Shown: one piece after another, positions 42,565 through 60,516 of the stretch | Position numbering within the stretch: position 1 is the first letter of the stretch | Layout: each line of letters begins with the position of its first letter | DNA from: Roseibium sediminicola | Lineage (GTDB): Bacteria; Pseudomonadota; Alphaproteobacteria; Rhizobiales; Stappiaceae | Direction of reading: 5' to 3' | DNA length: 64,000 bases | Assembly (NCBI RefSeq): GCF_023156505.1 | Contig: NZ_JALNMJ010000004.1 | Location: 124,001 to 188,000, forward strand | Program-made: the position numbers and the translations under genes | The notes under the pieces: generated by a model | Told to the model about the DNA's origin: nothing | Seen by the model: only the letters and a program-made list of their open reading frames with translations | The model's database searches: none

Positions 42565-42906
42565 GTCTTTCGTCTTTCATTGTGTTGCACGGAACAGCGC
42601 GAGTCTCAGCGTCGAATTGCAATATCAGACCGCACAAAAAAATCCATGTGCTGTTTCGCAGTCCCGAAATCCGGCGTTGCCGGCGTGACCGCCACGCAGC
42701 TTGCTCCTGCCGGCCGAACCCGTCTGGCGCAATCGCGGCTCTAAGGCGGTCCCGGTAACGAAGTCAATGGACTTCAGAGACAAAATGGAGCAACAAAGCG
42801 ACATGACGCATTTAAGGTATTGCGCGACGGATCTGGAGCCGGGTTGTCGAGGCACCTGATCAAGACTACGCGCAACAAAATCGCATCTTTCTGGGAGCTA
42901 AAAACA
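42565..42906. other. Divergent intergenic region between bmt and mttB
   Basis: 342 bases with no supportable gene. On the minus (bmt) strand, 42715-42665 can fold into adjacent hairpins: GCGTG/CACGC with a five-base loop and CCGGC/GCCGG with an AAC loop. A methyl-cycle riboswitch is conceivable, but I cannot match a known consensus. No clear sigma-70 promoter is seen on either strand. Confidence 0.35.
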
Positions 42907-44797: not shown

Positions 44798-47700
44798 TTG
44801 TCTGTGGCGTCGCTTACCTCCGATATCGATATTCTTGGTTATTCCACCCGCCTTCCGGGAGCCAAAGATTCTGCCGAATTTTGGTCGCTTCTGAAAAACG
44901 GTGAATGTGCGGTCACCTCCGTTTCCGAAGATCGCTGGCCGCTGGCAAGATTTGGTCACCCCACCCAAAGCACCTCAGGCAAAACCTACACATGGGCTGC
45001 AGGTCAGCTTGACGATGTCTGGGGATTTGATCCGGCCTTTTTCGGCATTTCCCCGCGGGAGGCCGTCCAGATGGACCCTCAGCAGCGTCTCTTGCTGCAG
45101 CTCGTCTGGGAGGCCCTTGAACACGCCAATATCCGCCCGAGCGATCTGGCTGGAACGACGACCGGCGTTTATGTCGGAGCGTCTTCGCTGGACTATCACC
45201 ATCGCTTTCTCGTCGATCCGGCGATGGCGGACATGCAGTTCATGACGGGCAACACCCTGTCAATCGTCTCAAATAGAATTTCCTACATCTACGACCTGCG
45301 CGGCCCGAGCTTCACCGTCGACACCGCCTGTTCGTCATCCATCGTTGCTCTCCATGAAGCCGTGTCGGCCATTGAAAGCGGCCAGATCGATACCGCAATC
45401 GTATGCGGAGTCAGCCTGCTGCTGAGCCCGTTTGCCTTTGTCGGTTTCTCCCGTGCAACCATGCTGTCTCCGACGGGCCTGTGTCAGGCCTTCGACGCCA
45501 ATGGCGACGGTTACGTCAGATCCGAAGGCGGCGCGGTGCTGGTCTTGCGTGCCGCGCGGGCCGGATTGCCGAAAGGCGCAAAAAGCCACGGCAAATTGCT
45601 GGCGACCGGCATCAACGCGGATGGCCGGACCGTCGGCCTGTCCTTGCCGTCCCCATACGCGCAGGCCGATCTGCTGCGCGAAATCTACGAAGGGCTCGAC
45701 ATCGACCCGTCCGCGCTCGCTTTTGTCGAGGCGCACGGAACCGGTACGCGCGTCGGCGACCCGGCCGAAGCGGATGCTCTTGGACGGGTGATTGGCCAGA
45801 AACGCAGCGACGCCTTGCCGATCGGTTCGGTGAAAACGAATATCGGCCATCTGGAGCCGGTATCGGGCCTCGTCGGTCTGATCAAGTCGGTCATGGCCCT
45901 GCGCGAAGACCTTCTGCCGAAGTCTCTGCATTTCCGGACCCCGAACCCCGACATTCCATTCGAAGACCTGAACCTGAAGGTGGCCGGCAGGGCCATCGAA
46001 CTGCAGCGTACCAGCAACCGTCGTCTGGCCGGCGTCAACTCCTTCGGCTTCGGCGGCACGAATGCGCATGCCGTGATCGGTGACGCAGACCCCGTGGCCG
46101 AGGAAAGTTCGTCCACGTCCAGCGAAGCGCCGCTGGTCCTCAGTGCCCGCTCGACAGGTGCCTTGAAGGATCTGGCTGCCCGCTATGCCGACCAGCTGGA
46201 CAGCGCTTCGGACGAGCTCGCAGGTGACGTGATTGCCACCAGCGCCCATGCCAGGGACCTGCTTTCGGAACGCCTGGTGGTGCTTGGAAAGTCCAGGGAA
46301 GAAAAGCTCGCGGCTCTGCGGACCTTTTCCGAGGAAGGCGAAGATCTGCCGGATCTGGTGTCCGGCAGCATCATCAAGCCCGAAGCCAAGATCGGATTTG
46401 TTTTCTCCGGCAACGGCTCGCAATGGGCCGGTATGGGTCAGGAAGCCTACCAGGCCGACGCGGATTTCCGCAAAGCTTTCGACAATGTCGACAAGCTGTT
46501 CATGGCCCTTAGTGGCTGGTCGCTGGTTACGACCATGTTCGCGGAAGATCTGGAAGCGGATCTTGAGCGCTCCGAGATCGCGCAGCCCCTGCTGTTTGCG
46601 ATTCAGGTCGGGATTGTCGAATCGCTGCGCGCGCGCGGCATAACCGCCGACGGAACCACCGGCCACTCGGTCGGTGAAGTCGCCGCGGCCTGGTGTTCGG
46701 GCGCTCTCGATCTTGAGCAGGCCGTCCGGGTGATCCGGGCCCGTTCCAGTGAACAGGAGGTCGTCCGCGACCTCGGTTCCATGGCGGCCCTTCTGCAGCC
46801 CGCGGATCTTGCGGTTGCGGCAATCGCGGAAAGCGGATTGCCGCGTCTCGAACTGGCCGCCGACAACAGCCCTCGCAGCGTGACCATTTCCGGTGACAGC
46901 GAAAGTCTGGACGCCTTTGCCAAATTTGCCCGCAAGAAGAAGTGGGCGATGCGCCGGCTCAATCTGGCCTACCCGTATCACAGTGCCCTGGTCGACCTGA
47001 TCGAGAAGCCTCTGCTGGAAGCGCTCGAAGGCCTGGCCCCGAAAGCGCCTGAATTGCCGTTCTATTCGACGGTCACGCCGGGCGAAACCGACATCAGTGT
47101 TTCGGCCGACTATTGGTGGAGCAATGTGCGCCGGCCCGTGCGCTTCGCGGCCGCCGTAGAAAACATGGCGATGGACGACTTTGCCGTGCTGCTTGAAATC
47201 GGTCCCAAGCCGGTTCTGGGCACCTATATAAACGATGTCCTGCGCGCGAAGGGCAAGAAGGCCAAGTTCCTGGAAACGCTGAAGGAACCGTCAAAGAAAG
47301 CGGCAGCGGCTCCCCTCGGCAACCCGCTGGACCGGATCGCGGCGACCATTCTTGCAAACGGTGGCAAAACCAACCTCGAGCAGTATGTTGGCGCGAAGCC
47401 GGCCACGCTTGTGCCGTTGCCCTCCTATCCATGGCAAAACACGGAATTCCGTCCGGAAAACAGCCCGGAACGGGTCGATTTCATGTTCGGCCAGACCTGG
47501 CCTCTGCTTGGCTACCGGCTGCGCCAGGATGCCGCCGAGTGGTTCAACCACATCGACAGCGGATCCCTGGCTTTCCTGAACGATCACAAGGTCGAGGACA
47601 GCGTCGTCTTCCCGGCAGCCGGCTACATCGAGATGAGCCTCAGGGCCGCCTTGCGCTGGTCCCGGAACGACCAGATTGAACTGCGCGATTTCGACATCCT

Positions 47701-50700
47701 GCGGCCGCTGGTGATCGAGGGCGACGAGATCTGGGAAACGCAGGTCCGGATTTCACCGGACGATCATGTGGTGGAAATTCTGTCCCGGCCGCGCCTTTCG
47801 GACAATGACTGGTCGCTGAACGCCCGCGGCACATTCATGACTCCGTCGACCACGACGCGTTCTCCTTGGCTGAAGGAAAACTCGGAAACCGTGGCCGAGC
47901 TGGATCACGTGGCGCTTTACGAGCTCACGAAAACCTTCGGGCTCAATTACGGTCCGGCGTTCCGGCGTGCCGACAAGGTTGTCAAGCATTCCAAGACCAG
48001 CGCGACGGTGACTCTGCTCGCGCAGGACGAATGCATTTCGAAATATCCCTTCTCGCTGTGCCCGACCCTTGTGGACTCGGGCTTCCACGGGCTGTTCGCG
48101 CTGCTAGACGGCGTCGAAAACGTCCCCCAGAACACCTCCTTCCTGCCGATCCGCATGGGCGCGCTGCGTCTTCTGGCGCCCGAAACCCATCCGGCGTCGG
48201 TACGCATCGAAGTCACCAAGGCCTCGCCGCGCTCGATCGAGGCAAGCTTCGAATTCCTGGGCGAAGACGGCCTGGTGGTCGCGCGGTTGACCAAGGCCCG
48301 ATTCAAGTCGGTTTCTCTTGGCCAAGACACACGTCCCGACGACCTGGTCTATCGCCAGATCGCGACCATTCTGCCGGAACGCGACCGCGTTTCGCCGCTG
48401 GACGACAGCTACCGGGGACTTCAGGCACTGGCGGCCAAGCTGGACCTGGCCGGTTCGGAAGATCAGGAGCTCGACGACAGCCGCGTGCTGATCGAGGCTC
48501 TTGGCCGGACCATCGTGCACCAGACACTGTTCGATCTTTACGGCGACGGCCAGCTTGTCCTGCAGAACCTGGTCGAGGCGGAAACCTTGCACGAAAGCGC
48601 GGTTCCGCTCGCGGCAAGCATGCTGAATTGGCTCACCGAGAGTGGTCTTTGCGAGGAAGGCGACGACGGCTACCAGCTGACGGATCCGTCTGGCAATCCA
48701 TCCGCGTCCCAACTGTTGCAGGCGCTGACGGACGGCGGCGGCGAGCATATCGCCGAAGCCGCTCTGCTCGCACGCCTCTGGACGGGCTTGAGCGATGTCT
48801 TGCGCACCGGGCTCGTGGAGACTGCCGGCCAGGAATACGCTTCCAGCCTTTTCGAAGCCTACCGGTCGTCCTCCCCCGGCAAGCGAGCGCTTTCAGCTGC
48901 CCTGAGAGCTTCTGTCGAGACCTTGATCGGCGACTGGCCGGCCACCCAGGCTCTTCGTGTCTTGCTTGTTGGCGCCACCGGTGGCCTTGCGTCTTCCATC
49001 GACGCCCTGCTCGATCCGACCTACATGGCGCTCGTTGTCACCGATGCGAGCGCATCTGCGGTCGGCCGCGGCGAACGCCTTTGGCAGGGAAGCTCGGCTA
49101 CGGCCTTCGTCGAACCGACGGAAGCCGATTTCACCTTTGAGAACCACTTCGACATCGTCCTGTTCGACACGTCACTCGCTGAGTTCGACACCGATACACT
49201 GAAGCGTCTTGCCCGTTCCATGGTAGCGGGCGGCGTCATGCTGGGCGCGGAAGCCTTGCCGCATCCGTTGACGGATCTGATCATGGGTGTGGGCGCCGAT
49301 TGGTGGAGCGAAAGCGCAAGCGCAGAATTCCCCGTGTCCAAGCAGCAATCCGACTGGACAAAGTCGCTCGAGACCGCCGGTCTGCGTTGCGTGGAAACAC
49401 TGCCGCTCAAGAGCCTGCTGATTGAGGCCGACCTTATCAGTGCCCGGGCTGTCGAGACCCAGGACGCTCAGACCGAAGTTGACGCGGAAGAAGGCGAGCA
49501 GACGGAAAACCTGCAGAAATCCTATCTTCTTCTGACGGATTCCGAGGGCCCTGCACATCGCCTGGCCGAAGGTTTGAAGGCCTGCCTGGAGCGCACCGGC
49601 CATAGGGCGACATTGCTCGTCCCCGGCGATGTTACCGAGCAACTCGGCGACAATATCTGGAGCGCGGCGCTGGATGCCGATCGTCAATCGGAAGAGGCGG
49701 ATGAGGCACTTAACACGCTGCTGAAGGAACACAACGGCCGGGTGGTCCATCTCCTCGGCGCCTATGCAAAACCGGGCAACGCACTGGCCACGGTGGATTC
49801 GCGCGCCTATAGCCTGATGGCGATCCTGAAAGCGCTTGGCGCCGACAGCGGTGAAGTGTCCCTGCTCGCCCCCGCGGGTGCCCAGGACATTGCCGGCGGC
49901 AAGGCTGCCGCGCCGGACCAGGCCGGTATCTGGGCCTTCGGCCGCGTCGTGATGAACGAATACCCTGACGCGAACCTGAAGCTGATCGACGTGTCTCCGG
50001 ACCTTGAGCCCGGGATCGCAGCGGCGCGAGTCGCTGACGAAATCCTCACCATGAATGGCGAACGGGAGATTGTGCTGGACAGCAAGACGCGCTCCGGCAT
50101 CCGTCTCCTGAGCGGTGGTGTCCTTTCCGACACAAACCTGCCCGAAGGCGCCAGCCCGGCCATGCGGCTGGACATTCTGCGCCAGGGTTCGCTTGACCAG
50201 CTGGCCTGGCAGGCCGTCGAACGCAAGCCGATCGCGGGCAAGGATGTCGAGATCGCCGTTGAAGCCAGCGGCCTGAACTTCCGCGATGTCATGTGGGCGC
50301 TTGGCCTGCTTCCGGAAGAAGCCCTGGAAGACGGTTTTGCGGGCCCGACCCTCGGCATGGAGTGCTGCGGACATGTGGTTTCCGTCGGACCGGATGTGAC
50401 CAGGTTCCAACCGGGCGACAAGGTGATCACGTTCGCACCGGCCTGTTTCGCGACCCATGTCACGGTGGACGAAAGCGGCTGTGCGCCGATGCCGAGCACC
50501 GTGTCTGCCGAGGAAGCCGCCACCATTCCGGTGACTTTCCTGACCGCCTATTACGCCCTGGTGCATCTTGCCGAGCTTTCCGAAGGCGATACGGTGCTGA
50601 TCCATGGCGGTGCCGGCGGTGTCGGTCTTGCTGCTCTGCAAATCGCCAAGTGGCGCGGCGCGAAAATCATCGCGACCGCCGGATCCGAGGACAAGCGCAA

Positions 50701-52417
50701 CACGCTGTCGCTTCTCGGCGCCGACGTGGTGCTCGATTCCCGCAGCCTTGCCTTCGTAGATGCCGTCATGGCGGAAACGGGTGGCGAAGGGGTCGATGTG
50801 GTGCTGAACTCGCTGTTCGGCGAGGCGATGGAGCGCAGCATTGATGTTCTGAAACCCTTCGGACGGTTCCTGGAACTTGGCAAACGCGACTATTACGGCA
50901 ACACCCGCATCGGTTTGCGCCCCTTCCGGCAGAACCTGACCTATTTCGGCATCGATGCCGACCAGCTGCTGACCCGCCAGCCGAAGCTTGCAGAGGCGCT
51001 GTTCGTCAAGCTGGTGGAGCTGTTCGAGGACGGCACACTCCGTCCGCTTCCGCACCGTGTGTTCGAAGCACCGGATGTGGTCGACGCGTTCCGCCTGATG
51101 CAGCAGGCCGGCCATATCGGCAAGATCGTCATTCGGCCACCCGAAGCGCCGGAATCTGTGCCGGCAGCGCGTGAAATCGCGTTTGACAGCAACGCTGTTT
51201 ATCTGATTGCCGGCGGTTTTGGTGGATTTGGCGCAGCGCTGTTGCACCGACTGGCCGATCACGGTGCGACCTCACTGGCCGTGCTCAGCCGCCGTGGCGA
51301 CAGCAGTGACGAGGCGCAACAGGTCATCGCCGAGCTTGCCGAACGCGGTGTCTCCGTCAAAGGCTATGCTTGCGACATCACCGACGTTGCCGCCATCAAG
51401 ACGGCGCTTGCCGCGATCCGCGCTGACGGCAAGCCACTGAAGGGTGTCTTCCACACCGCCATGGTGCTGAACGACGTTCTGCTTGCCAATATGGATCACA
51501 ACGGATTGACCAGCGTTCTGGCACCGAAGATTCAGGGCGCGGAACTGCTCGATCAGTTGACTGCGGACGATCCGCTTGACCACTTCGTCCTGTATTCGTC
51601 CGCGACGACGCTTGTCGGCAACCCCGGCCAGGCGAACTATGTCGCTGCCAACGGTTATCTGGAAGGCCTGGCCCGAAAGCGCCGGTCCGAAGGCAGGCCG
51701 GCTCTGGCCGTCGCCTGGGGCGCCATTTCCGATGCCGGTTATCTTGCCCGCAACGAAGACGTCAACGATTTGCTGTCGCGCAAGCTCGGCCGCCATGCCC
51801 TCACGGCAAAAGAGGCGCTCGACGGCCTGATGGCACTTATGGCGCTCCCGGATGGGACCGACGTCCAGCACGCGGCCCTTGGCTATGCCCGTATCGACTG
51901 GCAGGCTGCCCGCAAGGATCTCGCGCTGGTCGGCACGCCTCTTGTCAGCCTGCTGGGCCTCGGAGATGAGGACGATGCCGGTGCGGATGGCGTGATCGAT
52001 CTGGCGGCCATGCTGGAAGGTATGGATCAGGTCACCGCGGCGCAAACGGTTGCCAAGCTGCTGGCTGCTGAAATCGGCAAGATCCTTCGGATTGCACCGG
52101 AGGAAATCGACCCGCACAAGCCGCTGTCGGACATTGGTATGGACTCGCTGATGGCGCTGGAGCTGCGCATGAGCGCAGAACGCCAGCTGGGCATCGACAT
52201 TCCGCTGATGTCGCTCGCCAACGGCGCAACGCTGATTGATCTGTCCGGACGTGTTGCCAATCGCGTTCTGGGAGAGGAAAATGCGTCGGGCATCTCCGAC
52301 GAGACTCAGCAGCTCGCAAGCCTGCATATGGACGACAACCGGCCGGAAACGGAAGATCTGTCCGACGTTGCCGCAGAAGTTGAGAACAAGAGCCGGGAAC
52401 TCGGGTCCTTCCTGTAA
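44798..52417 (+). CDS. rkpA: RkpA-like reducing type I polyketide/fatty acid synthase
   Basis: A 2539-residue synthase. Domains in order: KS (about 5-430; Cys178, His313, His351), AT (about 530-830; GHSVGE with Ser624), DH (about 905-1180; His930 and Asp1093), a degenerate methyltransferase-like region (about 1190-1640), a structural pseudo-KR (to about 1780), ER (about 1790-2115; HGGAGGVG at 1939), KR (about 2120-2330; GGFGGFG, Ser2268, Tyr2281) and ACP (about 2380-2480; GMDSL with Ser2450). All reducing sites look intact, so a saturated chain is expected. There is no thioesterase. The layout and the following rkpG-like gene match Sinorhizobium meliloti RkpA, needed for capsular (K) polysaccharide. 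The start is TTG 44798 or GTG 44804. Confidence 0.9.
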   Translation: MSVASLTSDIDILGYSTRLPGAKDSAEFWSLLKNGECAVTSVSEDRWPLARFGHPTQSTSGKTYTWAAGQLDDVWGFDPAFFGISPREAVQMDPQQRLLLQLVWEALEHANIRPSDLAGTTTGVYVGASSLDYHHRFLVDPAMADMQFMTGNTLSIVSNRISYIYDLRGPSFTVDTACSSSIVALHEAVSAIESGQIDTAIVCGVSLLLSPFAFVGFSRATMLSPTGLCQAFDANGDGYVRSEGGAVLVLRAARAGLPKGAKSHGKLLATGINADGRTVGLSLPSPYAQADLLREIYEGLDIDPSALAFVEAHGTGTRVGDPAEADALGRVIGQKRSDALPIGSVKTNIGHLEPVSGLVGLIKSVMALREDLLPKSLHFRTPNPDIPFEDLNLKVAGRAIELQRTSNRRLAGVNSFGFGGTNAHAVIGDADPVAEESSSTSSEAPLVLSARSTGALKDLAARYADQLDSASDELAGDVIATSAHARDLLSERLVVLGKSREEKLAALRTFSEEGEDLPDLVSGSIIKPEAKIGFVFSGNGSQWAGMGQEAYQADADFRKAFDNVDKLFMALSGWSLVTTMFAEDLEADLERSEIAQPLLFAIQVGIVESLRARGITADGTTGHSVGEVAAAWCSGALDLEQAVRVIRARSSEQEVVRDLGSMAALLQPADLAVAAIAESGLPRLELAADNSPRSVTISGDSESLDAFAKFARKKKWAMRRLNLAYPYHSALVDLIEKPLLEALEGLAPKAPELPFYSTVTPGETDISVSADYWWSNVRRPVRFAAAVENMAMDDFAVLLEIGPKPVLGTYINDVLRAKGKKAKFLETLKEPSKKAAAAPLGNPLDRIAATILANGGKTNLEQYVGAKPATLVPLPSYPWQNTEFRPENSPERVDFMFGQTWPLLGYRLRQDAAEWFNHIDSGSLAFLNDHKVEDSVVFPAAGYIEMSLRAALRWSRNDQIELRDFDILRPLVIEGDEIWETQVRISPDDHVVEILSRPRLSDNDWSLNARGTFMTPSTTTRSPWLKENSETVAELDHVALYELTKTFGLNYGPAFRRADKVVKHSKTSATVTLLAQDECISKYPFSLCPTLVDSGFHGLFALLDGVENVPQNTSFLPIRMGALRLLAPETHPASVRIEVTKASPRSIEASFEFLGEDGLVVARLTKARFKSVSLGQDTRPDDLVYRQIATILPERDRVSPLDDSYRGLQALAAKLDLAGSEDQELDDSRVLIEALGRTIVHQTLFDLYGDGQLVLQNLVEAETLHESAVPLAASMLNWLTESGLCEEGDDGYQLTDPSGNPSASQLLQALTDGGGEHIAEAALLARLWTGLSDVLRTGLVETAGQEYASSLFEAYRSSSPGKRALSAALRASVETLIGDWPATQALRVLLVGATGGLASSIDALLDPTYMALVVTDASASAVGRGERLWQGSSATAFVEPTEADFTFENHFDIVLFDTSLAEFDTDTLKRLARSMVAGGVMLGAEALPHPLTDLIMGVGADWWSESASAEFPVSKQQSDWTKSLETAGLRCVETLPLKSLLIEADLISARAVETQDAQTEVDAEEGEQTENLQKSYLLLTDSEGPAHRLAEGLKACLERTGHRATLLVPGDVTEQLGDNIWSAALDADRQSEEADEALNTLLKEHNGRVVHLLGAYAKPGNALATVDSRAYSLMAILKALGADSGEVSLLAPAGAQDIAGGKAAAPDQAGIWAFGRVVMNEYPDANLKLIDVSPDLEPGIAAARVADEILTMNGEREIVLDSKTRSGIRLLSGGVLSDTNLPEGASPAMRLDILRQGSLDQLAWQAVERKPIAGKDVEIAVEASGLNFRDVMWALGLLPEEALEDGFAGPTLGMECCGHVVSVGPDVTRFQPGDKVITFAPACFATHVTVDESGCAPMPSTVSAEEAATIPVTFLTAYYALVHLAELSEGDTVLIHGGAGGVGLAALQIAKWRGAKIIATAGSEDKRNTLSLLGADVVLDSRSLAFVDAVMAETGGEGVDVVLNSLFGEAMERSIDVLKPFGRFLELGKRDYYGNTRIGLRPFRQNLTYFGIDADQLLTRQPKLAEALFVKLVELFEDGTLRPLPHRVFEAPDVVDAFRLMQQAGHIGKIVIRPPEAPESVPAAREIAFDSNAVYLIAGGFGGFGAALLHRLADHGATSLAVLSRRGDSSDEAQQVIAELAERGVSVKGYACDITDVAAIKTALAAIRADGKPLKGVFHTAMVLNDVLLANMDHNGLTSVLAPKIQGAELLDQLTADDPLDHFVLYSSATTLVGNPGQANYVAANGYLEGLARKRRSEGRPALAVAWGAISDAGYLARNEDVNDLLSRKLGRHALTAKEALDGLMALMALPDGTDVQHAALGYARIDWQAARKDLALVGTPLVSLLGLGDEDDAGADGVIDLAAMLEGMDQVTAAQTVAKLLAAEIGKILRIAPEEIDPHKPLSDIGMDSLMALELRMSAERQLGIDIPLMSLANGATLIDLSGRVANRVLGEENASGISDETQQLASLHMDDNRPETEDLSDVAAEVENKSRELGSFL

Positions 52418-52443
52418 CCGGCGTTATTTAAGGAATAACAGGA

Positions 52444-53802
52444 ATGGGCGCAGATGATCGCGCCAAGCTGATGGACAGCTTGAAAGCCAACCGCCGCTCC
52501 GCACGCGGTCGGGCCGCATCGACCGCGGCCCGGCCTGCTGCTGCCGCACCCAAGCGCAAGGTTTACGACTTCAAGGAACTGCCGCAGGTCAAGCAGCTTC
52601 AGATGCACCGTGCCGCGGCGGACATGATGGGCATCGAAAACCCGTTTTTCCGGCCGCATGACGGCCTGGCCGCAGGCACCAGTGTCATCAACGGTGGCAA
52701 CTACGATAATTTTGCGTCCTACAACTACCTGGGCCTGAACGGACACCCGAAGGTCAACCAGACCGCCAAGGCCTATCTGGACCAATTCGGAACAAGCGTA
52801 TCGGCGAGCCGGATCGTCGCGGGCGAGCGGCCCTTCCACGGGGAACTGGAAGCCGCTCTGGCGCGTATCCACGGTGTGGAATCGTCCATCGTCATGGTGT
52901 CGGGACACGCCACCAACGTGACCACGATCGGCCACATGATGCACAAGGGCGACCTGGTGCTGACCGATGCCTTCGTGCACAACTCGATTGCCGAAGGCGT
53001 TCGGCTGTCCGGCGCCACCCGAATGAATTTCCCCCATGACGATCTGGACGGTCTTGAAAAGATGCTGTCCGATCATCGGCACAAATTCGACAAGGTGCTG
53101 ATTGTTGTCGAGGGGCTCTATTCCATGGACGGGGATTTCCCCGACCTCAGGCGGATCGTGAAGCTGAAGCAGGCCTATGACGCCTGGCTCATGGTCGACG
53201 AAGCCCATTCCATCGGCGTGCTCGGCAAGACCGGCAAGGGCATCGCCGAACACTTTGGCATCGACCCCAATGAGGTCGAGATGTGGATGGGTACGCTCAG
53301 CAAGACATTTTCGTCCTGCGGCGGCTACATCGCCGGGTCCAAAGTCCTGTGCGACTATCTGAAGGTGTCCGCTCCGGGGTTTGTTTTTTCCGTCGGACTG
53401 TCGGCTGCCCTTGCCGGCGCGGCGATTGCCTCCGCCGAGCTGCTGGAGCAGGAACCGGATCGTGTCGAGCGCCTGCAGAAGAACGGCGCCCTGTTCCTGA
53501 AGCTGGCCAAGGAAGCCGGGTTGAACACGGGTCCGAGCGCGGGCTACGCGGTTGTTCCGGTCATTGTCGGCGATTCCGCTGGCGCGGCCACGCTGTCCAA
53601 TCGCTTGCTGGCAAAGGGCATCAACGCCCTGCCGATCATTTTTCCCGCGGTACCCGAAAAGTCTGCGCGGATCCGTTTCTTCATCACCAGCGAGCACACG
53701 GAAGAGCAGATCGCCCGCGCCGTGGAAACAACCGCAGCCGAACTGGACGCCATGCGCGCGGATGGAACGGCCGTCGATCGCCTGATCAAGGCGGCCCGGT
53801 AA
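52444..53802 (+). CDS. rkpG: RkpG-like alpha-oxoamine synthase (serine palmitoyltransferase/AONS family)
   Basis: A 452-residue PLP enzyme. The core shows DEAHSIGVLG near residue 254 (PLP-binding Asp and His) and GTLSKTFSSCGGY with the internal aldimine Lys287, both typical of alpha-oxoamine synthases, which join an acyl thioester to an amino acid with loss of CO2. An N-terminal extension of about 50 residues, basic and Ala-rich, is not found in AONS or KBL and may dock to the synthase ACP. It follows rkpA by 26 bases and is surely co-transcribed. S. meliloti RkpG is the closest named relative I know. The most likely role is release of the RkpA product as an aminoketone. Confidence 0.87.
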   Translation: MGADDRAKLMDSLKANRRSARGRAASTAARPAAAAPKRKVYDFKELPQVKQLQMHRAAADMMGIENPFFRPHDGLAAGTSVINGGNYDNFASYNYLGLNGHPKVNQTAKAYLDQFGTSVSASRIVAGERPFHGELEAALARIHGVESSIVMVSGHATNVTTIGHMMHKGDLVLTDAFVHNSIAEGVRLSGATRMNFPHDDLDGLEKMLSDHRHKFDKVLIVVEGLYSMDGDFPDLRRIVKLKQAYDAWLMVDEAHSIGVLGKTGKGIAEHFGIDPNEVEMWMGTLSKTFSSCGGYIAGSKVLCDYLKVSAPGFVFSVGLSAALAGAAIASAELLEQEPDRVERLQKNGALFLKLAKEAGLNTGPSAGYAVVPVIVGDSAGAATLSNRLLAKGINALPIIFPAVPEKSARIRFFITSEHTEEQIARAVETTAAELDAMRADGTAVDRLIKAAR

Positions 53803-53809
53803 GCCCTTC

Positions 53810-53829
53810 GCGGCGCTCACAAGCGCCGC
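53810..53829. terminator. Hairpin between convergent rkpG- and rkpH-like genes
   Basis: GCGGCGCT (53810-53817) pairs with AGCGCCGC (53822-53829) around CACA, between the two stop codons. The T-runs are weak on both strands, so it may stop transcription only in part. Confidence 0.55.
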
Positions 53830-53837
53830 AGTTTGCT

Positions 53838-54662
53838 TCAGCCGGCATTTTCCTGCCGGCGGTCCGCTTCCCGGTACCTCGGATCCTGCTCGATCTCCAC
53901 ATCAAAGCCGCCCATGAACAGATCGCCGAGCTTTGCCGGCAGGAGGTTCTGAAGGCGGATGCCAAAGGCAAGCAAGAACGGAAAGGCATAGAAGGCCTTG
54001 CGTTTCTCGATTGCTTTGCGCATCAGCTTGGCCGCCCGATCCGCCGGCATTTCGAAAGGCTTAGCACCTTTGTGGCGGGCGGACATCGGTGAGGTGACAA
54101 ATCCCGGGCAAATGATCGTCACGGAAACCCCGAACGGCTTCAGCCAGCCGCGCAGGGAATGGCCATAGGCAATGAGCGCGGCCTTGGTGGCGCTGTAGCT
54201 CGGCATGTCCGGCAATGCCCGCATCCCTGCCAGCGAGGAAATCAGAACCACCTGGCCGCGCCGCCGGGCCTGCATGGCGTCGATGGCGCCGGTCACCGTG
54301 TTGACCACGCCCCGGTAATTGACGTCGATCTGCCGGTCGCTGTCGGCGTCGCTTTCGCGTGTGCGGTTGGGGCCGAGACCAGCGGTCACGCCCGCATTGG
54401 CGATGACCAGGTCAATCGGATGGCGTTTGTCCAGATCCTTCAGGTAGGCGTGAAGGGCATCGCGGTCGCGAATGTCGATTGCCTTGGTCTCGCCGTCGCT
54501 GCCCGCTGCCTTTATTTCCTCCAGCAAGGGCAGCAAACGCGCTTCGTCCCTGGCAATCAGAGCAAAATAGGTTCCGGCACCGGCAAACTCCCGGGCAAGC
54601 GACTGGCCGATCCCGCCGCTTGCGCCGGTCAGCACGATGACCCTGTCTTGAACGCCTGTCAT
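53838..54662 (-). CDS. rkpH: RkpH-like short-chain dehydrogenase/reductase
   Basis: A 274-residue classical SDR. The cofactor motif TGASGGIG is at 12-19, NAG near 89, catalytic Ser142/143, Tyr156 and Lys160. The C-terminal part (about 215-245) is hydrophobic, as in membrane-associated 3-ketosphinganine reductases. It is the last gene of the minus-strand export operon, 18 bases after the kpsC-like gene, and converges with rkpG. The likely reaction is reduction of the 3-keto group made by the RkpG-like enzyme; RkpH of S. meliloti is the named parallel. Confidence 0.86.
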   Translation of the reverse strand: MTGVQDRVIVLTGASGGIGQSLAREFAGAGTYFALIARDEARLLPLLEEIKAAGSDGETKAIDIRDRDALHAYLKDLDKRHPIDLVIANAGVTAGLGPNRTRESDADSDRQIDVNYRGVVNTVTGAIDAMQARRRGQVVLISSLAGMRALPDMPSYSATKAALIAYGHSLRGWLKPFGVSVTIICPGFVTSPMSARHKGAKPFEMPADRAAKLMRKAIEKRKAFYAFPFLLAFGIRLQNLLPAKLGDLFMGGFDVEIEQDPRYREADRRQENAG

Positions 54663-54680: not shown

Positions 54681-56420
54681 TTACAGTCCGATCTTCCGGC
54701 CAAACCAGGAAGCATGCCGCTTGACGGCGGTGATCAACAGGTGCCTGCGATCGGCCCTTTGTTCGGCCAGTCGCGACACCAGAAACTCCGGTGAGCACGG
54801 CAGAAGTGTGACCGGATCGATAGTGCGTGCATAAATCACAAGTGACAGAAAAACCAGTTCGGCCAGACTGCGCTGCCGTCCCCTGCCCTCCAGATGTGTC
54901 AGATCCTCGCACAGCCCCCAGCCGGCGTAAAACGGGGCGCCGTGCACCGACACTTTCTTTCCGCGCAACAATGCCTCGAACCCTGAAAGGGATGAGAAGG
55001 TTTCCACCGCATCCACCGCTTCCAGGAGATCGATGATGTTGGCGTCTTCGGCGAAGTCATCCGCGAATGCCAACGCTTCCTGCCGGGAAAGCTTGCCTTT
55101 GCGCAATCCGGTTTCAACATCCGGATGCGGCTTAAACACCAGAAAGGCATCTGGATTGCGGTCACGTGCAAGTTGCAAAAGATCGAGATTTACATTGGGC
55201 GTGTTTGCGCAGTCGATTGTTGCCGAGCGCGATTTCCGGATGGCGGCGTCATCGGCGACCTGTCCGGGGACGAGTATCTTTGTTTTTCTTGCTGGAAATT
55301 CGAAACTGCGGGCCGATCCGAAATTGTATTTAGACACCTTGGCTTTGCGAATGAGCTCAATCAGCGTGTGCCCACGTTCGATCTCATCCGGTGTCAGATC
55401 ATGGTCCCGCAACAAGACCTCAAGCCGGCTGGGCCGGGACGGATCATAGTAGATGCCCAAGTCGTCTGCGGCGAGCATTGCGCCACGGGCGAGTCCAGCG
55501 CCGAGCCCCACGGAACGCAGGAACCCGTCCTCTATCCGCACCAGAGACAGGCCCTCGCGCGCGCAGTCGGCTTCAAAAGCCGCATCGGTACGGCCGGCCC
55601 AGGACAGGATGCGCCCCCCAGTCGCCTTGGCGGCGGCAATCGCTTCTTCCTGGGTTTCGGGAAAGGTGGCTTCCCCTCCTTTCCCGGAGAAGGTTGCCCG
55701 GATGGACGGGTGGTTCCAGTACTGCGCGCCGTAACAATGGGCCGGTTGCGCGTTTTCCTGCCAGTGGGTGAACATCAATCGGCAAATCTCAGCGGCGGCC
55801 TCGGCAGAGATGGACGCGCCGGTGTAAGGCGAATACCAGACGGTCCGGTAAGTCAGCACATGATCGAGCAGTGGTTCGAGTGGAATCCCTTCCACCGCGC
55901 AGATCGTCGACAGGGTGGACCAGAAAGGGTGTTTCGACTGCGCATCATCCTTTCCGCTCAACAGCTGCTCGAGGCAACGCCCGGAGCAGCCGAGCGGTGC
56001 GCTTTCGCCGGACGCCTGCGCAGAAAAATTGCTTAGCTGCCACAGTCCGGAAAAATCGACAGTGTCTCTGTTCGGCGATTGCCGAAAAGAACGAAGGAGC
56101 GACCTGCCCACAAGTTCTTCTGAAGGTTGCTGGTCTTGCTGGTCTTGTTCGACCGGCAGCAAGATCAGGCTTGGCGGCATTCGTCGTGCGTTTTGCGGCG
56201 TCGGTCCATCAAGTACCAGAAGAGGTGTCGCGCCGGCCCGCATCCAGGCTTTTCCGGGCCCGAAAAATGCCCCCTCGCCAACTGCGACGTAGGGACGGCC
56301 GTCAGGCGGCGGTTGGAGCGCACCGTTTGTCAGTGCTGCAGCCAGACGCTTCCGAAGCGGCTTCAGCGACGGATCGGCGAAACGGATGTCCCTGCGCCAT
56401 GACCTGGTTCTTTCCGTCAT
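54681..56420 (-). CDS. kpsC: KpsC-like capsule polysaccharide protein (beta-Kdo transferase family)
   Basis: A 579-residue cytosolic protein of the KpsC/LipA family. In E. coli KpsC and KpsS build a short beta-linked Kdo linker on the lipid end of group 2 capsules. The hallmark segment IEDGFLRSVGLGAGLA, then GIYYDPSRPSRLE (about residues 320-360), and the late FKPHPDVETG and FSSLSGFEALLRGKKVSVHG are all present. It is shorter than E. coli KpsC (675 residues), and the N-terminal half is divergent, so one of the two transferase modules may be lost or reduced. Its ATG overlaps the stop of the upstream kpsS-like gene by four bases. Confidence 0.86.
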   Translation of the reverse strand: MTERTRSWRRDIRFADPSLKPLRKRLAAALTNGALQPPPDGRPYVAVGEGAFFGPGKAWMRAGATPLLVLDGPTPQNARRMPPSLILLPVEQDQQDQQPSEELVGRSLLRSFRQSPNRDTVDFSGLWQLSNFSAQASGESAPLGCSGRCLEQLLSGKDDAQSKHPFWSTLSTICAVEGIPLEPLLDHVLTYRTVWYSPYTGASISAEAAAEICRLMFTHWQENAQPAHCYGAQYWNHPSIRATFSGKGGEATFPETQEEAIAAAKATGGRILSWAGRTDAAFEADCAREGLSLVRIEDGFLRSVGLGAGLARGAMLAADDLGIYYDPSRPSRLEVLLRDHDLTPDEIERGHTLIELIRKAKVSKYNFGSARSFEFPARKTKILVPGQVADDAAIRKSRSATIDCANTPNVNLDLLQLARDRNPDAFLVFKPHPDVETGLRKGKLSRQEALAFADDFAEDANIIDLLEAVDAVETFSSLSGFEALLRGKKVSVHGAPFYAGWGLCEDLTHLEGRGRQRSLAELVFLSLVIYARTIDPVTLLPCSPEFLVSRLAEQRADRRHLLITAVKRHASWFGRKIGL

Positions 56421-57739
56421 AGCGGCACCCCAAGCTCGCGCGCTTTTTCCAGTCTCGGCGGCGGATCGACATAAGCACCGAGCGGATTGAGGGCACGGGC
56501 CGCGATCTTCTCGGCCATGTTTTCAGCGGCCACCGCAACACCGTCCCTGTTGTGAATCGAGCCTCTGACCTGGGTCGTTGCCGCGAGCGCAGTGACATAG
56601 GCCGCCAGAAGACCGGCATCCGGCAACTCAGGTTTCGACCAGAATGTGTCCAGCGTCCCCTGATGGGTTAATCCGGCAATATCAAAATGCGCCGGCACCA
56701 GTGTCTTGACCGGAAGACCGGCCTGCAGCGCTTCGAGACCGGCCGTGGAGTTGAGTGTCGCTATGCCTGACGCTTTCTCGAACGGCTTCGCCAGGCCGCC
56801 GCCGTCCAGATAGTGGACCCGCTCGCCCAAGCCATGCGCGTTCGCAAGTTCTGCCGCGACCTGAGGCCAGGTCTCGAAGCCGACATCGAGCGGGTGGCTC
56901 TTCAAGAGCAGTTGGGCCTCGTATGGAGCTGCCCTGGCGAAGGAGCGAAAGACGGTTTCCAGCACGTCAGTGAAACTGTCATAAGGCGAATGACGGCGGA
57001 GCTGGAAATCGCCTTCCAGCTGTATCGGGAGAACGAAATACGGCCTCCCTACCGCCTGCACCTTCGCGACAACCTCCCTCGCCTTTCTATCGCGAATTCC
57101 CTGACGCAGGAGCCGCGCCGCACCGCGAAGATATTCCTCGACCGGTGGATAGATCGTATGGCGCTGATAGTGCGGGTAAAGCGGCTTCAAAAACACATTT
57201 GCCAGATTGTAGAGGACGTCCGGTCCCGTTTGCAGCCAGAAGGATGACGGGAACCGGGGGCTCAAATCTATTGCGCCCGCCCGATCCGCGATTTTGCGAA
57301 TTGCGTCGGGGTCGTTCGGAAAATGACTAAGGGTCGACAGGCCGTCGCGCTCCAGGGTCATCCAGCCTGGTCGCAAGGCACCGAGTTCAGTCACGGCAAT
57401 GTAAATACCCAGCTTCCGGGCCTTTTCAATCGCAATGCGGTGATAGAGCCTTTGATCCCCGTGCAGGACAAGATCGGTGATGTGGTTGCTTGTCAGGTAG
57501 TCACTGATAAAGGCCGGCCAGTCCCCGGGCGTTCCTTTGAAACTGCTGCACCCGTCGCCGTGCCAGTGTATCCAGTCCCCGGCACAAAAATTGATGCGGC
57601 TCACCGGAAATCCACGTTCACGCAGACGGGCGCCGATCATCTTGAACAACGGCGACAACGGTCCTTGCAAAAACAACACGCGACGGCCGGAGGTGAGGCT
57701 CAACGGTGATTGAGCCTGTGCCTTACCCGTCCCAGGCAT
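56417..57739 (-). CDS. KpsS-like capsule polysaccharide protein (copy B)
   Basis: A 440-residue protein of the KpsS/LipB family. Recognisable parts are RVLFLQGPLSP near the start, NFCAGDWIHWH, ELGALRPGWMTLERDG near residue 120, LLLKSHPLD near residue 275 and LNSTAGLEALQAGLPV near residue 325. KpsS adds the first Kdo to the lipid acceptor in E. coli. The open frame extends to 57796, but the ATG at 57739 with GGTGG just upstream reduces the overlap with copy A to 17 bases. It shares the N-terminal GDW segment with copy A, pointing to tandem duplication and divergence. Confidence 0.84.
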   Translation of the reverse strand: MPGTGKAQAQSPLSLTSGRRVLFLQGPLSPLFKMIGARLRERGFPVSRINFCAGDWIHWHGDGCSSFKGTPGDWPAFISDYLTSNHITDLVLHGDQRLYHRIAIEKARKLGIYIAVTELGALRPGWMTLERDGLSTLSHFPNDPDAIRKIADRAGAIDLSPRFPSSFWLQTGPDVLYNLANVFLKPLYPHYQRHTIYPPVEEYLRGAARLLRQGIRDRKAREVVAKVQAVGRPYFVLPIQLEGDFQLRRHSPYDSFTDVLETVFRSFARAAPYEAQLLLKSHPLDVGFETWPQVAAELANAHGLGERVHYLDGGGLAKPFEKASGIATLNSTAGLEALQAGLPVKTLVPAHFDIAGLTHQGTLDTFWSKPELPDAGLLAAYVTALAATTQVRGSIHNRDGVAVAAENMAEKIAARALNPLGAYVDPPPRLEKARELGVPL

Positions 57740-59072
57740 GAGTCCACCGCTCGGTCTTGCCGCGTTTTCGCAGTTGTTCCGCAAAATTCGTGGCAATGCC
57801 GCGCGATTTCGCTATTGCCAGTCGCGGGGGGGGCTCGCAAAGAGCTTGAGGCTGGTTGACCGTGTCGTTCACGATACGCTCCGCCATGAGGGTCGCCGCG
57901 GCTTCACGGCCTTCCTTCGTATAGAAGCATCCCTTGACTTGAATGGCGGCAGCCAACAGGCGTTCGAGGCAGTCGAGCAAATGAGTGTCCGGCGCCGTCC
58001 CATTTCGCCAAAATGCGTCCAGGTCCTTCTGACAGGTCAATCCGGGAATATCATACGTGGCGATGCCCAAGACCTTTGTCGGGCATCCCACACGCAATGC
58101 ATGAAGCCCAGTTGTGCTGTTGATCGTCAGAGATCCTGCCGCGTGGGTCAGCAACTGATTGAGGTCACCGCCATCCACCAGAAGAACACGTTTTTTCACG
58201 CGATGTTTTTTGGCAAGTGTTCTGAGAATTTTAGCCCACGGTTCCATGCCATTGTCGAGCGGATGGATTTTGAAAACCAGACGCGCGGCGCTGGGGGCAT
58301 GTGCCGCAAAAGACACGATGACTTCCTCGGCGGCTTCGGCAATGTGGTCATATTGGGAATTGAAACGCAGCTGGTAGTCGCTCTGCAACTGTAGAGGAAA
58401 CACGTAATAGGGCAGATTTGTGGAGATAATATCGTCAATCACGTGCTTAGCGTGCCGATTTCGGCGTCTTGCCAAAGAAAATCGCGGGATGTTGCTCAGA
58501 TAGTCGATTAGCGGGTGATAGAGCTTGTCCCGCACGTATCCCGGAAAGGCCAACGGAAAAATCACATTGGCCATGTTCCAGGACACCTCGTTCAGTGCCT
58601 CATTGATAAACGGATATCGATACAGCGGCGTGCGATCGATTTCAGGAAGATCTGCCCCCAGCCGGCGGATCAGGTCTGGATCTGCCGGGAAACGGGAATG
58701 GGCGGACATGCCGTAATGTTCCAGCGTGATCCAGTCTGGCCTCAAATAACCGTTTTCATAGGCAAGGCATGTGAGACCGAGTTCTGCCCCAATTTCCGCT
58801 GCTGCAACATGGTAAGGCACGCGGTCGGCATAATAGATGATATGCGTGACGTTGTTTTCACGGCAAAAGGATCGGAGCCAGTTCGGCCAGTCCCGCAGGC
58901 TGCCTCCATACGACGTACAGCGATTGTCATGCCAGTTCAACCAGTCTCCCGCGCACAGATTGACACGACAAGTCTTCGCGCCAACCGCTTCAAGGCTGTC
59001 CGCGATCGTGCGCGCAAACTTGCCAGGCGGGCCCTGCAAAAAAAGCGCCACCAAGGAGTCGACTGAACCCAT
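57723..59072 (-). CDS. KpsS-like capsule polysaccharide protein (copy A)
   Basis: A 449-residue KpsS/LipB-family protein. Matching segments to copy B are ALFLQGPPG, NLCAGDWLNWHDNRC, YENGYLRPDWITLE, FKIHPLDNG and INSTTGLHALRVGCP. I chose the ATG at 59072; an in-frame TTG at 59138 would add 22 residues and put the start ten bases after the wza-like gene, so the start is not certain. It is the second gene of the operon. Two KpsS-like proteins side by side is unusual; one may act on a different acceptor lipid. Confidence 0.84.
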   Translation of the reverse strand: MGSVDSLVALFLQGPPGKFARTIADSLEAVGAKTCRVNLCAGDWLNWHDNRCTSYGGSLRDWPNWLRSFCRENNVTHIIYYADRVPYHVAAAEIGAELGLTCLAYENGYLRPDWITLEHYGMSAHSRFPADPDLIRRLGADLPEIDRTPLYRYPFINEALNEVSWNMANVIFPLAFPGYVRDKLYHPLIDYLSNIPRFSLARRRNRHAKHVIDDIISTNLPYYVFPLQLQSDYQLRFNSQYDHIAEAAEEVIVSFAAHAPSAARLVFKIHPLDNGMEPWAKILRTLAKKHRVKKRVLLVDGGDLNQLLTHAAGSLTINSTTGLHALRVGCPTKVLGIATYDIPGLTCQKDLDAFWRNGTAPDTHLLDCLERLLAAAIQVKGCFYTKEGREAAATLMAERIVNDTVNQPQALCEPPPRLAIAKSRGIATNFAEQLRKRGKTERWTHAWDG

Positions 59073-59148
59073 ACTTATTTGCCAATCCACAGGCCTGCCC
59101 ACGGCGACCTTTAGGGGCCGTAGTGCGCTCCGTTCCAATCAACAACAC

Positions 59149-60279: not shown

Positions 60280-60516
60280 TAGTACCCGTTCCACCCTTAT
60301 TGCTGCCAGTCTGGTAGCACCCAATCGCGGTCATGTCCAAGATGCATACGCGCTATCCCCCGGAGAAACATCCCAGCTGTGACTTTGCTGTAACAGTAGA
60401 CCAGTTTTTCCTAGTCAATTGATTAATTTCCGATTTATCGTCTTCTGGCAGGCGTCCGCGACACATAAAATCGACGAAGCGAACCGTTGGCAACCCCAGG
60501 AGCTCCGACCCTTTTC

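What the first reader, a model, noticed from the sequence alone, without database searches (positions are those of the whole stretch)
44798..54662. A synthase, alpha-oxoamine synthase and ketoreductase that together look like a sphingoid-lipid pathway inside a capsule locus
The RkpA-like fully reducing synthase lacks a thioesterase, the next gene is a serine-palmitoyltransferase-type enzyme, and a 3-ketosphinganine-reductase-like SDR is convergent to it. In sphingolipid and fumonisin pathways this enzyme set converts an acyl thioester plus an amino acid into a long-chain amino alcohol. Here the genes are packed with kpsC/kpsS-like and export genes. I infer a sphingoid-like lipid made on a type I synthase and used as capsule carrier or anchor in place of the phosphatidylglycerol of E. 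coli. The rkp genes of S. meliloti are known to be needed for K polysaccharide, but to my knowledge the lipid product is not settled.
Basis: partly seen in the sequence, partly recalled or inferred. Interest (0 to 1): 0.85.

Follow-up and report, generated by a model that had tools for sequence, protein, structure and literature searches.

The report
Sphingolipid-type anchor pathway for capsules
Three genes beside a bacterial capsule operon very likely build a long-chain sphingolipid base on a polyketide synthase, probably as the greasy end on which the capsule sugar chain is started and held, a lipid whose identity had been left open in root-nodule bacteria.

Summary
In detail: a complete KS-AT-DH-ER-KR-ACP synthase without thioesterase, an alpha-oxoamine synthase (AOS) 26 bp downstream, and a convergent SDR that ends a Wza-KpsS-KpsS-KpsC-SDR operon. 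The AOS groups with Pseudomonas SgaB-type enzymes; MYb115 SgaB is a published serine palmitoyltransferase, giving C24-28 sphinganines and probable phosphoglycerol sphingolipids (PMC12134224). Close MYb115 orthologues, found with its published primers, lie beside KpsC, KpsS, the SDR and an LtaS/GacH-type protein (RkpI), a setting that paper does not mention. Of AOS loci with enough flank, 51 of 52 have the synthase and 40 of 52 a capsule gene; 20 control loci have neither. The 21 tested genomes without capsule genes in the fetched flank all carry strong KpsS/KpsC-family genes elsewhere, against 0 of 29 comparison genomes. Best reading: a PKS-made sphingoid lipid is acceptor and anchor for a Kdo-linked capsule; sphinganine-phosphoglycerol would mimic E. 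coli's lyso-PG. Not shown: the product here, covalent attachment, or the head group here (RkpI was not found in this genome). A lipid carrier for rkp-1 was already proposed; its sphingoid identity is the new part.

The parts
44798..52417 (+). Iterative type I PKS/FAS (RkpA/WcbR/SgaA type), KS-AT-DH-ER-KR-ACP, no thioesterase; proposed to make the long saturated acyl-ACP
   Evidence: Pfam; catalytic residues and 36% identity to the L176 sga-type PKS over 2461 columns
52444..53802 (+). PLP-dependent alpha-oxoamine synthase (RkpG/SgaB type); proposed acyl-ACP + L-serine to 3-ketosphinganine
   Evidence: tree; 51% identity to the L176 SgaB orthologue
53838..54662 (-). SDR (SgaC-like); proposed 3-ketosphinganine reductase; last gene of the apparent kps operon
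   Evidence: 37% identity to the L175 sgaC orthologue, TGASGGIG and YSATK motifs present
54681..56420 (-). KpsC-like beta-Kdo transferase, one KpsC module at residues ~263-536
   Evidence: solved KpsC 6mgd E 6.9e-52; PF05159
56417..57796 (-). KpsS-like Kdo transferase, copy 1
   Evidence: PF05159 and NF050054 (below its cut-off)
57723..59138 (-). KpsS-like Kdo transferase, copy 2 (39% identical to copy 1)
59149..60324 (-). Wza/KpsD-type outer-membrane polysaccharide export protein
   Evidence: Poly_export and SLBB domains

Best explanation
The synthase builds a long saturated acyl chain on its own C-terminal ACP. The AOS condenses it with L-serine, which releases the chain without a thioesterase, giving a 3-ketosphinganine; the SDR reduces this to a long-chain sphinganine. 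The sphingoid lipid, bare or carrying a phosphoglycerol head group, is the acceptor on which KpsS and KpsC build the beta-Kdo linker. The capsule then grows on it and is exported by KpsMTE and Wza with the sphingoid lipid as its anchor. In relatives with RkpI, that LtaS/GacH-type enzyme would move glycerol phosphate from phosphatidylglycerol to sphinganine, giving a single-chain phosphoglycerol lipid shaped like the lyso-PG acceptor of E. coli. Shown by tools: gene content, catalytic residues, relatedness, synteny, co-occurrence. Shown in print for relatives: SPT activity of SgaB, sphinganines and probable phosphoglycerol sphingolipids in MYb115, need for rkp-1 in capsule secretion (as reviewed). 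Inferred: product here, head group, covalent attachment.
For: (1) AOS tree: window and sga AOS lie together among PKS-linked AOS (46 rows, SH-aLRT 92; with more distant PKS-linked rows 55, 99*), apart from 7 SPT rows, KBL and ALAS. (2) Loci L175-L177 match the MYb115 sgaA start primer 22 of 22 and its end 21-22 of 23; L176 ends its PKS with PNRLIE and its AOS with ELAKIG, as the MYb115 primers translate. (3) L175 has a full two-module KpsC, KpsS, SDR and RkpI beside the PKS-AOS pair; the named plasmid pL21564-1 has the same order plus kdsA, kdsB and a KpsF-family gene. Four genes separate AOS and SDR there, the number the MYb115 locus tags imply. (4) Of 52 AOS loci (of 80) with at least 7.5 kb on both sides: PKS 51, SDR 38, KpsS 34, RkpI 30, any capsule gene 40; controls 0 of 20 for PKS and capsule genes; 14 of 18 family-level bins have a capsule gene. 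(5) The 21 tested genomes whose locus showed no capsule gene in the fetched flank all have strong PF05159 genes (best E 6.5e-71 or lower); 0 of 29 comparison genomes do. (6) The RkpI profile matches GacH phosphoglycerol transferase (E 1.8e-31) and lipoteichoic acid primase/synthases, in line with the phosphoglycerol sphingolipids proposed for MYb115. (7) Rkp-1 is described in print as making a lipid carrier for capsule secretion. (8) No classical SPT seen in the genome: its other three AOS are ALAS, KBL, ALAS; KpsM-, KpsT- and KpsE-type genes are on contig C51. (9) SPTs of three proteobacteria prefer an acyl-ACP (PMC9386255 abstract).
Against: No product, lipid or capsule of this organism was measured. 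Fraysse 2005 (title only, in reference lists) reports a phospholipid anchor on the S. meliloti 1021 poly-Kdo capsule; a sphingoid phosphoglycerol would also be a phospholipid, but ordinary PG is not excluded. RkpI was not found in this genome (one hit, E 0.009) or in R. marinum (none at E 1e-10). RkpI has N-terminal hydrophobic segments and by analogy a periplasmic catalytic domain, whereas KpsS works in the cytoplasm (recalled), so its product would have to cross the membrane. The MYb115 phosphoglycerol structures are proposed from mass alone, and more sphinganine did not give more of them. The sgaB-end primer matches less well than the sgaA primers: 18, 14 and 16 of 21 bases in L176, L175 and L177, while unrelated loci reach 13-16. 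The SDR is only 27% identical to the S. meliloti one, and an SDR was seen in 38 of 52 loci. Many enterobacterial plasmid records carry KpsS, and none of these genera is among the 14 plasmid records with this AOS, so KpsS does not need such a lipid in general.
Confidence: 0.66

Rival explanations
1. The three genes make a free sphingoid lipid, a secondary metabolite or outer-membrane lipid as proposed for MYb115, that supports or travels with the capsule but is not its covalent anchor.
For: MYb115 accumulates free sphinganines, and raising sphinganine did not raise phosphoglycerol sphingolipids. Its paper treats them as secondary metabolites. Related AOS occur without capsule genes nearby in Streptomyces, Planktothrix and the short-PKS group.
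Against: The SDR lies inside apparent kps operons; 21 of 21 against 0 of 29 genome co-occurrence; rkp-1 is described as needed for capsule secretion.
Confidence: 0.2
2. The AOS joins the acyl chain to another amino acid (glycine, alanine or other), giving a different amino alcohol or amino ketone that plays the same anchor role.
For: The window AOS matches no SPT equivalog above cut-off and scores best with bioF. It is only 51% identical to the SgaB orthologue.
Against: [quoted passage not shown]
Confidence: 0.1
3. The capsule ends in ordinary (lyso-)phosphatidylglycerol-Kdo as in E. coli; the PKS product only helps export, for example as an allosteric or chaperone lipid.
For: Review passages give PG-Kdo as the conserved terminus of ABC-dependent capsules. 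Fraysse 2005 title: phospholipid anchor in S. meliloti 1021.
Against: It leaves unexplained why a whole PKS pathway tracks KpsS/KpsC in these lineages, and why an LtaS/GacH-type protein so often accompanies it.
Confidence: 0.12

Closest known systems
PfSgaAB(C) sphinganine cluster of Pseudomonas fluorescens MYb115 (PMC12134224; abstract, sections 7, 8, 9, 15 and passages read)
   Same: Single reducing PKS, separate AOS directly downstream, KDSR-like SDR nearby; sga-type AOS group with the window's; kps genes beside the pair in primer-matched orthologues.
   Different: AOS 51% and PKS 36% identical to the L176 orthologues. The Pseudomonas loci add PhyH, GNAT and RkpI genes, not seen in the window locus. 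The paper has 0 occurrences of 'capsul' or 'rkp'.
rkp-1 cluster (rkpA, rkpGHIJ) of Sinorhizobium meliloti; locus L222
   Same: PKS-AOS-SDR-(RkpI)-KpsS with an export-protein gene on the other side. Described in print as making a lipid carrier or anchor.
   Different: Its SDR is a different subtype (27% identity). Window gene order differs: SDR convergent, at the end of a KpsC/KpsS/Wza operon; no RkpI.
wcb (wcbR) capsule clusters of Burkholderia, as described in PMC3908369 (passage), and the Caballeronia and Paraburkholderia plasmid loci L226, L227
   Same: Type I PKS inside a capsule cluster; L226 and L227 have SDR-LTA synthase family-PKS-x-AOS with export genes or a capsular biosynthesis gene.
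   Different: An LpxC-like deacetylase gene lies between PKS and AOS; no such gene in the window.
E. coli group 2 capsule glycolipid (KpsS, KpsC on lyso-PG)
   Same: KpsS- and KpsC-type enzymes and KpsMTE/Wza-type export.
   Different: Its acceptor is PG-derived (review passage); that E. coli lacks a PKS-AOS module is recalled, not searched here.
Classical bacterial SPT route (Caulobacter AcpR/AasR/SPT, PMC9386255, abstract and passages)
   Same: AOS chemistry, ACP-bound acyl donor.
   Different: Acyl chain comes from fatty acid via a separate ACP and ligase; the SPT rows form another group in the tree.

Membership tests
SgaAB-type PKS/AOS sphinganine pathway | Single-module KS-AT-DH-ER-KR-ACP synthase without thioesterase | tested here: met
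SgaAB-type PKS/AOS sphinganine pathway | AOS gene directly downstream, grouping with SgaB-type AOS | tested here: met
   gap 26 bp; one side of a branch of 46 rows, SH-aLRT 92, quick tree
SgaAB-type PKS/AOS sphinganine pathway | KDSR-like SDR nearby | tested here: met
   SDR 53838-54662, 37% identical to the L175 sgaC orthologue
SgaAB-type PKS/AOS sphinganine pathway | L-serine use and sphinganine product | not testable with these tools
   needs enzyme assay or lipidomics
Classical serine palmitoyltransferase (NCBIfam SPT equivalogs) | Score above curated cut-off | tested here: not met
   289 of 640, 259 of 500, 196 of 670 bits; outside the SPT group
ABC-transporter-dependent (kps) capsule | KpsS and KpsC family Kdo transferases | tested here: met
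   curated KpsS cut-off of 600 bits not reached (187 and 223)
ABC-transporter-dependent (kps) capsule | KpsM, KpsT, KpsE and outer-membrane export protein in the genome | tested here: met
   Wza-like in window; ABC-2 permease, ATPase and BexC/CtrB/KpsE-family protein on contig C51, KpsM and KpsE models below curated cut-offs
ABC-transporter-dependent (kps) capsule | Poly-Kdo linker on a lipid | not testable with these tools
   needs chemistry
RkpI / LtaS-GacH-type phosphoglycerol transferase step | Gene present in the genome | tested here: not met
   one hit at E 0.009 in the own genome; none at E 1e-10 in R. marinum G145

The most novel reading that the evidence does not exclude
A second class of Kdo-linked capsules across Alpha-, Beta- and Gammaproteobacteria is built not on lyso-phosphatidylglycerol but on a PKS-made sphinganine-phosphoglycerol. 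PKS, AOS and ketosphinganine reductase make the base, RkpI or a substitute adds phosphoglycerol from PG, and KpsS/KpsC add Kdo. The rkp-1 lipid of rhizobia, the wcb PKS product of Burkholderia and the MYb115 'secondary metabolite' sphingolipids are then one and the same capsule-anchor pathway.
Probability: 0.45. Interest if true: 0.92.

Novelty: new variant of a known kind. Interest (0 to 1): 0.82.

Why it matters
The rkp-1 fatty-acid-synthase-like genes have been tied to K polysaccharide since the 1990s (titles of Petrovics 1993 and Kiss 1997 in reference lists), and the papers I could read leave the lipid product open. Joining them to a pathway with a measured product gives a named, testable molecule. 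It would also recast a recently described host-protective bacterial sphingolipid as part of capsule assembly. It predicts sphingolipids in many bacteria not counted as sphingolipid producers, and it would add a second lipid class to the capsule glycolipid terminus described as conserved.

Tried and rejected
Rejected: (a) that the AOS is only a BioF, KBL or ALAS paralogue: the genome's other three AOS are ALAS, KBL and ALAS, and the window AOS groups elsewhere. (b) That PKS and capsule genes are neighbours by chance (controls). (c) That RkpI is universal: it was not found in this genome or in the six full-flank Stappiaceae loci. (d) That the shorter PKS-AOS genes (L147-L151, L156) belong here: no capsule genes nearby, no PF05159 gene in the genomes, and the one aligned (L149) shows no ER motif. 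Led nowhere: a wrongly built 16S pattern (no matches); full texts of Kiss 1997, Muller 2009 and Fraysse 2005 are not held. Not done: acceptor-specific KpsS tree, structure prediction, search for a PPTase gene. The ten paper searches listed, in the rows shown (several lists were cut), no paper that by title or abstract start joins sgaAB/rkp/wcb genes to a sphingoid capsule anchor; I opened ten papers. The library holds open-licence papers only.

The gamma set holds the 20 best of 104 matching genomes (15 long-PKS loci, 5 short). The profiles were seeded from the window and about a dozen of these loci, which match by construction; thresholds were E 1e-10 and, for SDR, KpsT and PKS, 90, 100 and 150 bits. 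The 21 genomes are all full-flank loci without capsule genes in the three sets plus two cut by contig ends; loci with short flanks were not otherwise tested. The AOS tree is a quick one of 66 rows chosen by hand from 135, no bootstrap, midpoint-rooted; the tool warned of long branches (KBL row L003, L199, L015) that may meet falsely. Of its seven SPT rows, four pass a curated SPT cut-off; L193, L196 and L197 were named by score alone. That MYb115 itself has the kps genes is inferred from orthologues and locus-tag spacing; its own genome was not seen, and L176 has an unexamined 1.6-kb gap between PhyH and AOS. Catalytic motifs of PKS, SDR and LtaS families are recalled.
Full report
Observation. 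Pfam finds KS, AT, DH, ER, KR and one C-terminal ACP, and no thioesterase; the catalytic residues looked at are present, as in ten long-PKS relatives aligned with it, though the DH motif lacks its usual glycine (motifs recalled). The SDR closes a leftward operon Wza - KpsS - KpsS - KpsC - SDR with gaps of 10, -74, -4 and 18 bp. The 579-aa protein matches solved KpsC over one module (6mgd, E 6.9e-52); the two others match the KpsS model below its cut-off. KpsM-, KpsT- and KpsE-type genes and another Capsule_synth gene lie on the 5.7-kb contig C51 of the same genome. The nearest named relatives are Roseibium (R. marinum AOS 91% identical).

What the AOS is. It is no classical SPT by the curated models. 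The genome's other AOS are two ALAS and one KBL, and its best match to the alphaproteobacterial SPT model is 236 bits against a cut-off of 670, so this gene is the only candidate seen for sphingoid synthesis. In a quick 66-row tree it lies among PKS-linked AOS (46 rows, SH-aLRT 92; with the more distant PKS-linked rows 55, 99*), apart from seven SPT rows, KBL and ALAS; five Pseudomonas sga-type AOS are in the same group. The tool warned of long branches among the outgroup rows.

The experimental bridge. PMC12134224 (abstract, sections 7, 8, 9, 15 and passages read) shows that P. fluorescens MYb115 makes C24, C26 and C28 sphinganines through the PKS SgaA and the AOS SgaB, and proposes phosphoglycerol sphingolipids from mass. 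Purified SgaB condenses L-serine with acyl-CoA surrogates, with virtually exclusive preference over alanine and glycine; the SDR SgaC is presumed to be the ketoreductase. The paper counts 6,101 homologous clusters, dominantly in Burkholderia, and has no occurrence of 'capsul' or 'rkp'. I found close orthologues by the paper's primers: in L175-L177 the sgaA start primer matches 22 of 22 bases and its end 21-22 of 23; the sgaB end matches 18 of 21 in L176 but only 14 and 16 of 21 in L175 and L177, no better than unrelated loci. L175 and L176 PKS end in PNRLIE and the L176 AOS ends in ELAKIG, exactly as the primers translate. These came from 16 of 398 genomes of one Pseudomonas-type genus with such an AOS.

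Their neighbourhood is a capsule locus. In L175 the order is KpsC (673 aa, both modules matching solved KpsC) - KpsS (272 bits, below cut-off) - SDR - RkpI - GNAT - second Capsule_synth - PhyH, then the convergent AOS and PKS (Pfam naming on the like locus L155). Four genes lie between AOS and SDR, the number implied by the MYb115 tags RS19800 and RS19775 if tags step by five. The named plasmid pL21564-1 of Pseudomonas sp. TMW 2.1634 has the same order with kdsA, kdsB and a KpsF-family isomerase in front, and its RkpI is annotated as an LTA synthase family protein. Caballeronia p2 reads SDR - LTA synthase family - PKS - deacetylase - AOS - export protein - ABC permease - ATPase - chain-length protein. 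Paraburkholderia dioscoreae pII reads capsular biosynthesis protein - SDR - LTA synthase family - PKS - deacetylase - AOS. A Shinella plasmid has an RkpI-like protein (60% over 518 aa), capsule genes, PKS, AOS and SDR, and S. meliloti Ak57 is similar, with rkpI seen in two pieces.

Statistics and controls. PKS and AOS are on one strand less than 200 bp apart or overlapping in 73 of 74 scorable loci of 80. With profile searches, 52 of 80 loci have at least 7.5 kb on both sides: PKS 51, SDR 38, KpsS 34, KpsC 10, RkpI 30, Wza 27, any capsule gene 40. In the Pseudomonas set 15 of 17 have full flanks: PKS 15, KpsC 13, KpsS 11, RkpI 13, SDR 11. In the other gamma set 10 of 15 have full flanks: PKS 10, SDR 7, RkpI 7, any capsule gene 4. 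In 20 control neighbourhoods of SPT, KBL, ALAS and BioF-like genes: PKS 0, capsule genes 0, SDR 1. In six shorter-PKS loci: capsule genes 0, SDR 3 (all). By family-level bins, 14 of 18 have a capsule gene, but Rhizobiaceae supply 17 of 52 loci.

A test that could have failed. If the pathway serves KpsS/KpsC, genomes whose PKS-AOS locus shows no capsule gene in the fetched flank should have them elsewhere. They do: 21 of the 21 tested (12 loci, 5 other gamma genomes, 4 Pseudomonas-type, two of these cut by contig ends) carry Capsule_synth genes with best E 6.5e-71 or lower. Of 29 comparison genomes (6 with the shorter PKS-AOS, 23 of a Pseudomonas-type genus without this AOS) none has a strong one; three of the 23 have weak matches (best 4e-16). 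In Vreelandella (G142) the KpsS match starts about 1 kb beyond the fetched stretch L152, with KpsC next to it. The reverse does not hold: 99 plasmid records, most of the listed ones enterobacterial, carry KpsS at E 1e-20, and no enterobacterial genus is among the 14 plasmid records with this AOS at E 1e-100, so KpsS as such does not need the pathway.

Head group. RkpI, found in 30 of 52 full-flank loci and with the SDR in 28 of those 30, is a sulfatase-superfamily protein whose profile matches the phosphoglycerol transferase GacH (E 1.8e-31), lipoteichoic acid primase and lipoteichoic acid synthases. E277, T317, H437, D487 and H488 (L074 numbering) are invariant in six aligned members. This fits the phosphoglycerol sphingolipids proposed for MYb115. 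A sphinganine-phosphoglycerol would be single-chained with a terminal glycerol, like the lyso-PG that KpsS uses in E. coli (lyso-PG is recalled; the review passage says PG). The fit is imperfect: RkpI has N-terminal hydrophobic segments and family members work outside the cytoplasm (recalled). RkpI was not found in the window genome or in the Stappiaceae loci (0 of 6), so here the head group is open: another enzyme may add it, or Kdo may sit directly on sphinganine.

What was already known. In print, rkp-1 products take part in making and modifying a specific lipid carrier for K-polysaccharide secretion (PMC4881576 passage); rkpA seems to make, and rkpGHIJ to modify and transport, a lipophilic molecule that may be carrier or anchor (PMC3557214 passage); and wcbR/rkpA lie in capsule clusters (PMC3908369 passage). 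S. meliloti 1021 poly-Kdo is titled as harbouring a phospholipid anchor (Fraysse 2005, title only). PMC9386255 (abstract and passages) shows that the SPTs of Caulobacter crescentus, E. coli B and Sphingomonas wittichii prefer an acyl-ACP, which makes direct transfer from the PKS ACP plausible; the passages mention RkpF only as a capsule ACP. In the rows listed by my ten searches I saw no paper that names a sphingoid base as the rkp/wcb lipid.

Verdict. Sphingoid-base synthesis by these three genes: about 0.85. Its use as acceptor and anchor of the capsule: about 0.66 together with the former. The specific sphinganine-phosphoglycerol anchor as a general second class: about 0.45.

Noticed in passing
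   Followed up: partly
L223 (Streptomyces anthocyanicus), L224 (Planktothrix agardhii): The AOS match lies inside one large protein (1607 aa in Streptomyces, rest not examined; a 2532-aa protein annotated type I PKS in Planktothrix), with no capsule genes annotated in the stretch seen.
   Followed up: no
L226 10898-11824, L227 10887-11801: A gene annotated as UDP-3-O-acyl N-acetylglycosamine deacetylase (LpxC-like) sits between PKS and AOS in Caballeronia and Paraburkholderia plasmids; role unknown.
   Followed up: no
L221 14114-14716 and 16832-17875; L155, L175: GNAT acyltransferase and phytanoyl-CoA dioxygenase genes in the Pseudomonas loci could N-acylate or hydroxylate the sphingoid base.
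   Followed up: no
L222 7270-8870: In the S. meliloti Ak57 record rkpI is unannotated and matches as two pieces in different frames, so it may be broken in that strain or sequence. The record is called pSymB but is 3.7 Mb long.
   Followed up: partly
G000 contig C51 (L016), 5732 bases: KpsM-, KpsT- and KpsE-type genes and a 344-aa Capsule_synth gene, 31% identical to the window KpsC-like protein, on a separate small contig of the window's genome.
   Followed up: partly
window 52444-53802: At one aligned site the window AOS, the sga AOS and L149 read HNS where the SPT, KBL and ALAS rows read HAS; probably close to the PLP site, meaning unknown.
   Followed up: no
L036, L222 against window and L175: Two SDR subtypes: rhizobial RkpH is about 26-27% identical to the window SDR, which is closer to the Pseudomonas SgaC type (37%).
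   Followed up: partly
window 42820-44445 and 60487-61701: The module is flanked by a trimethylamine methyltransferase (MttB) family gene and a GlcNAc 2-epimerase family gene.
   Followed up: no
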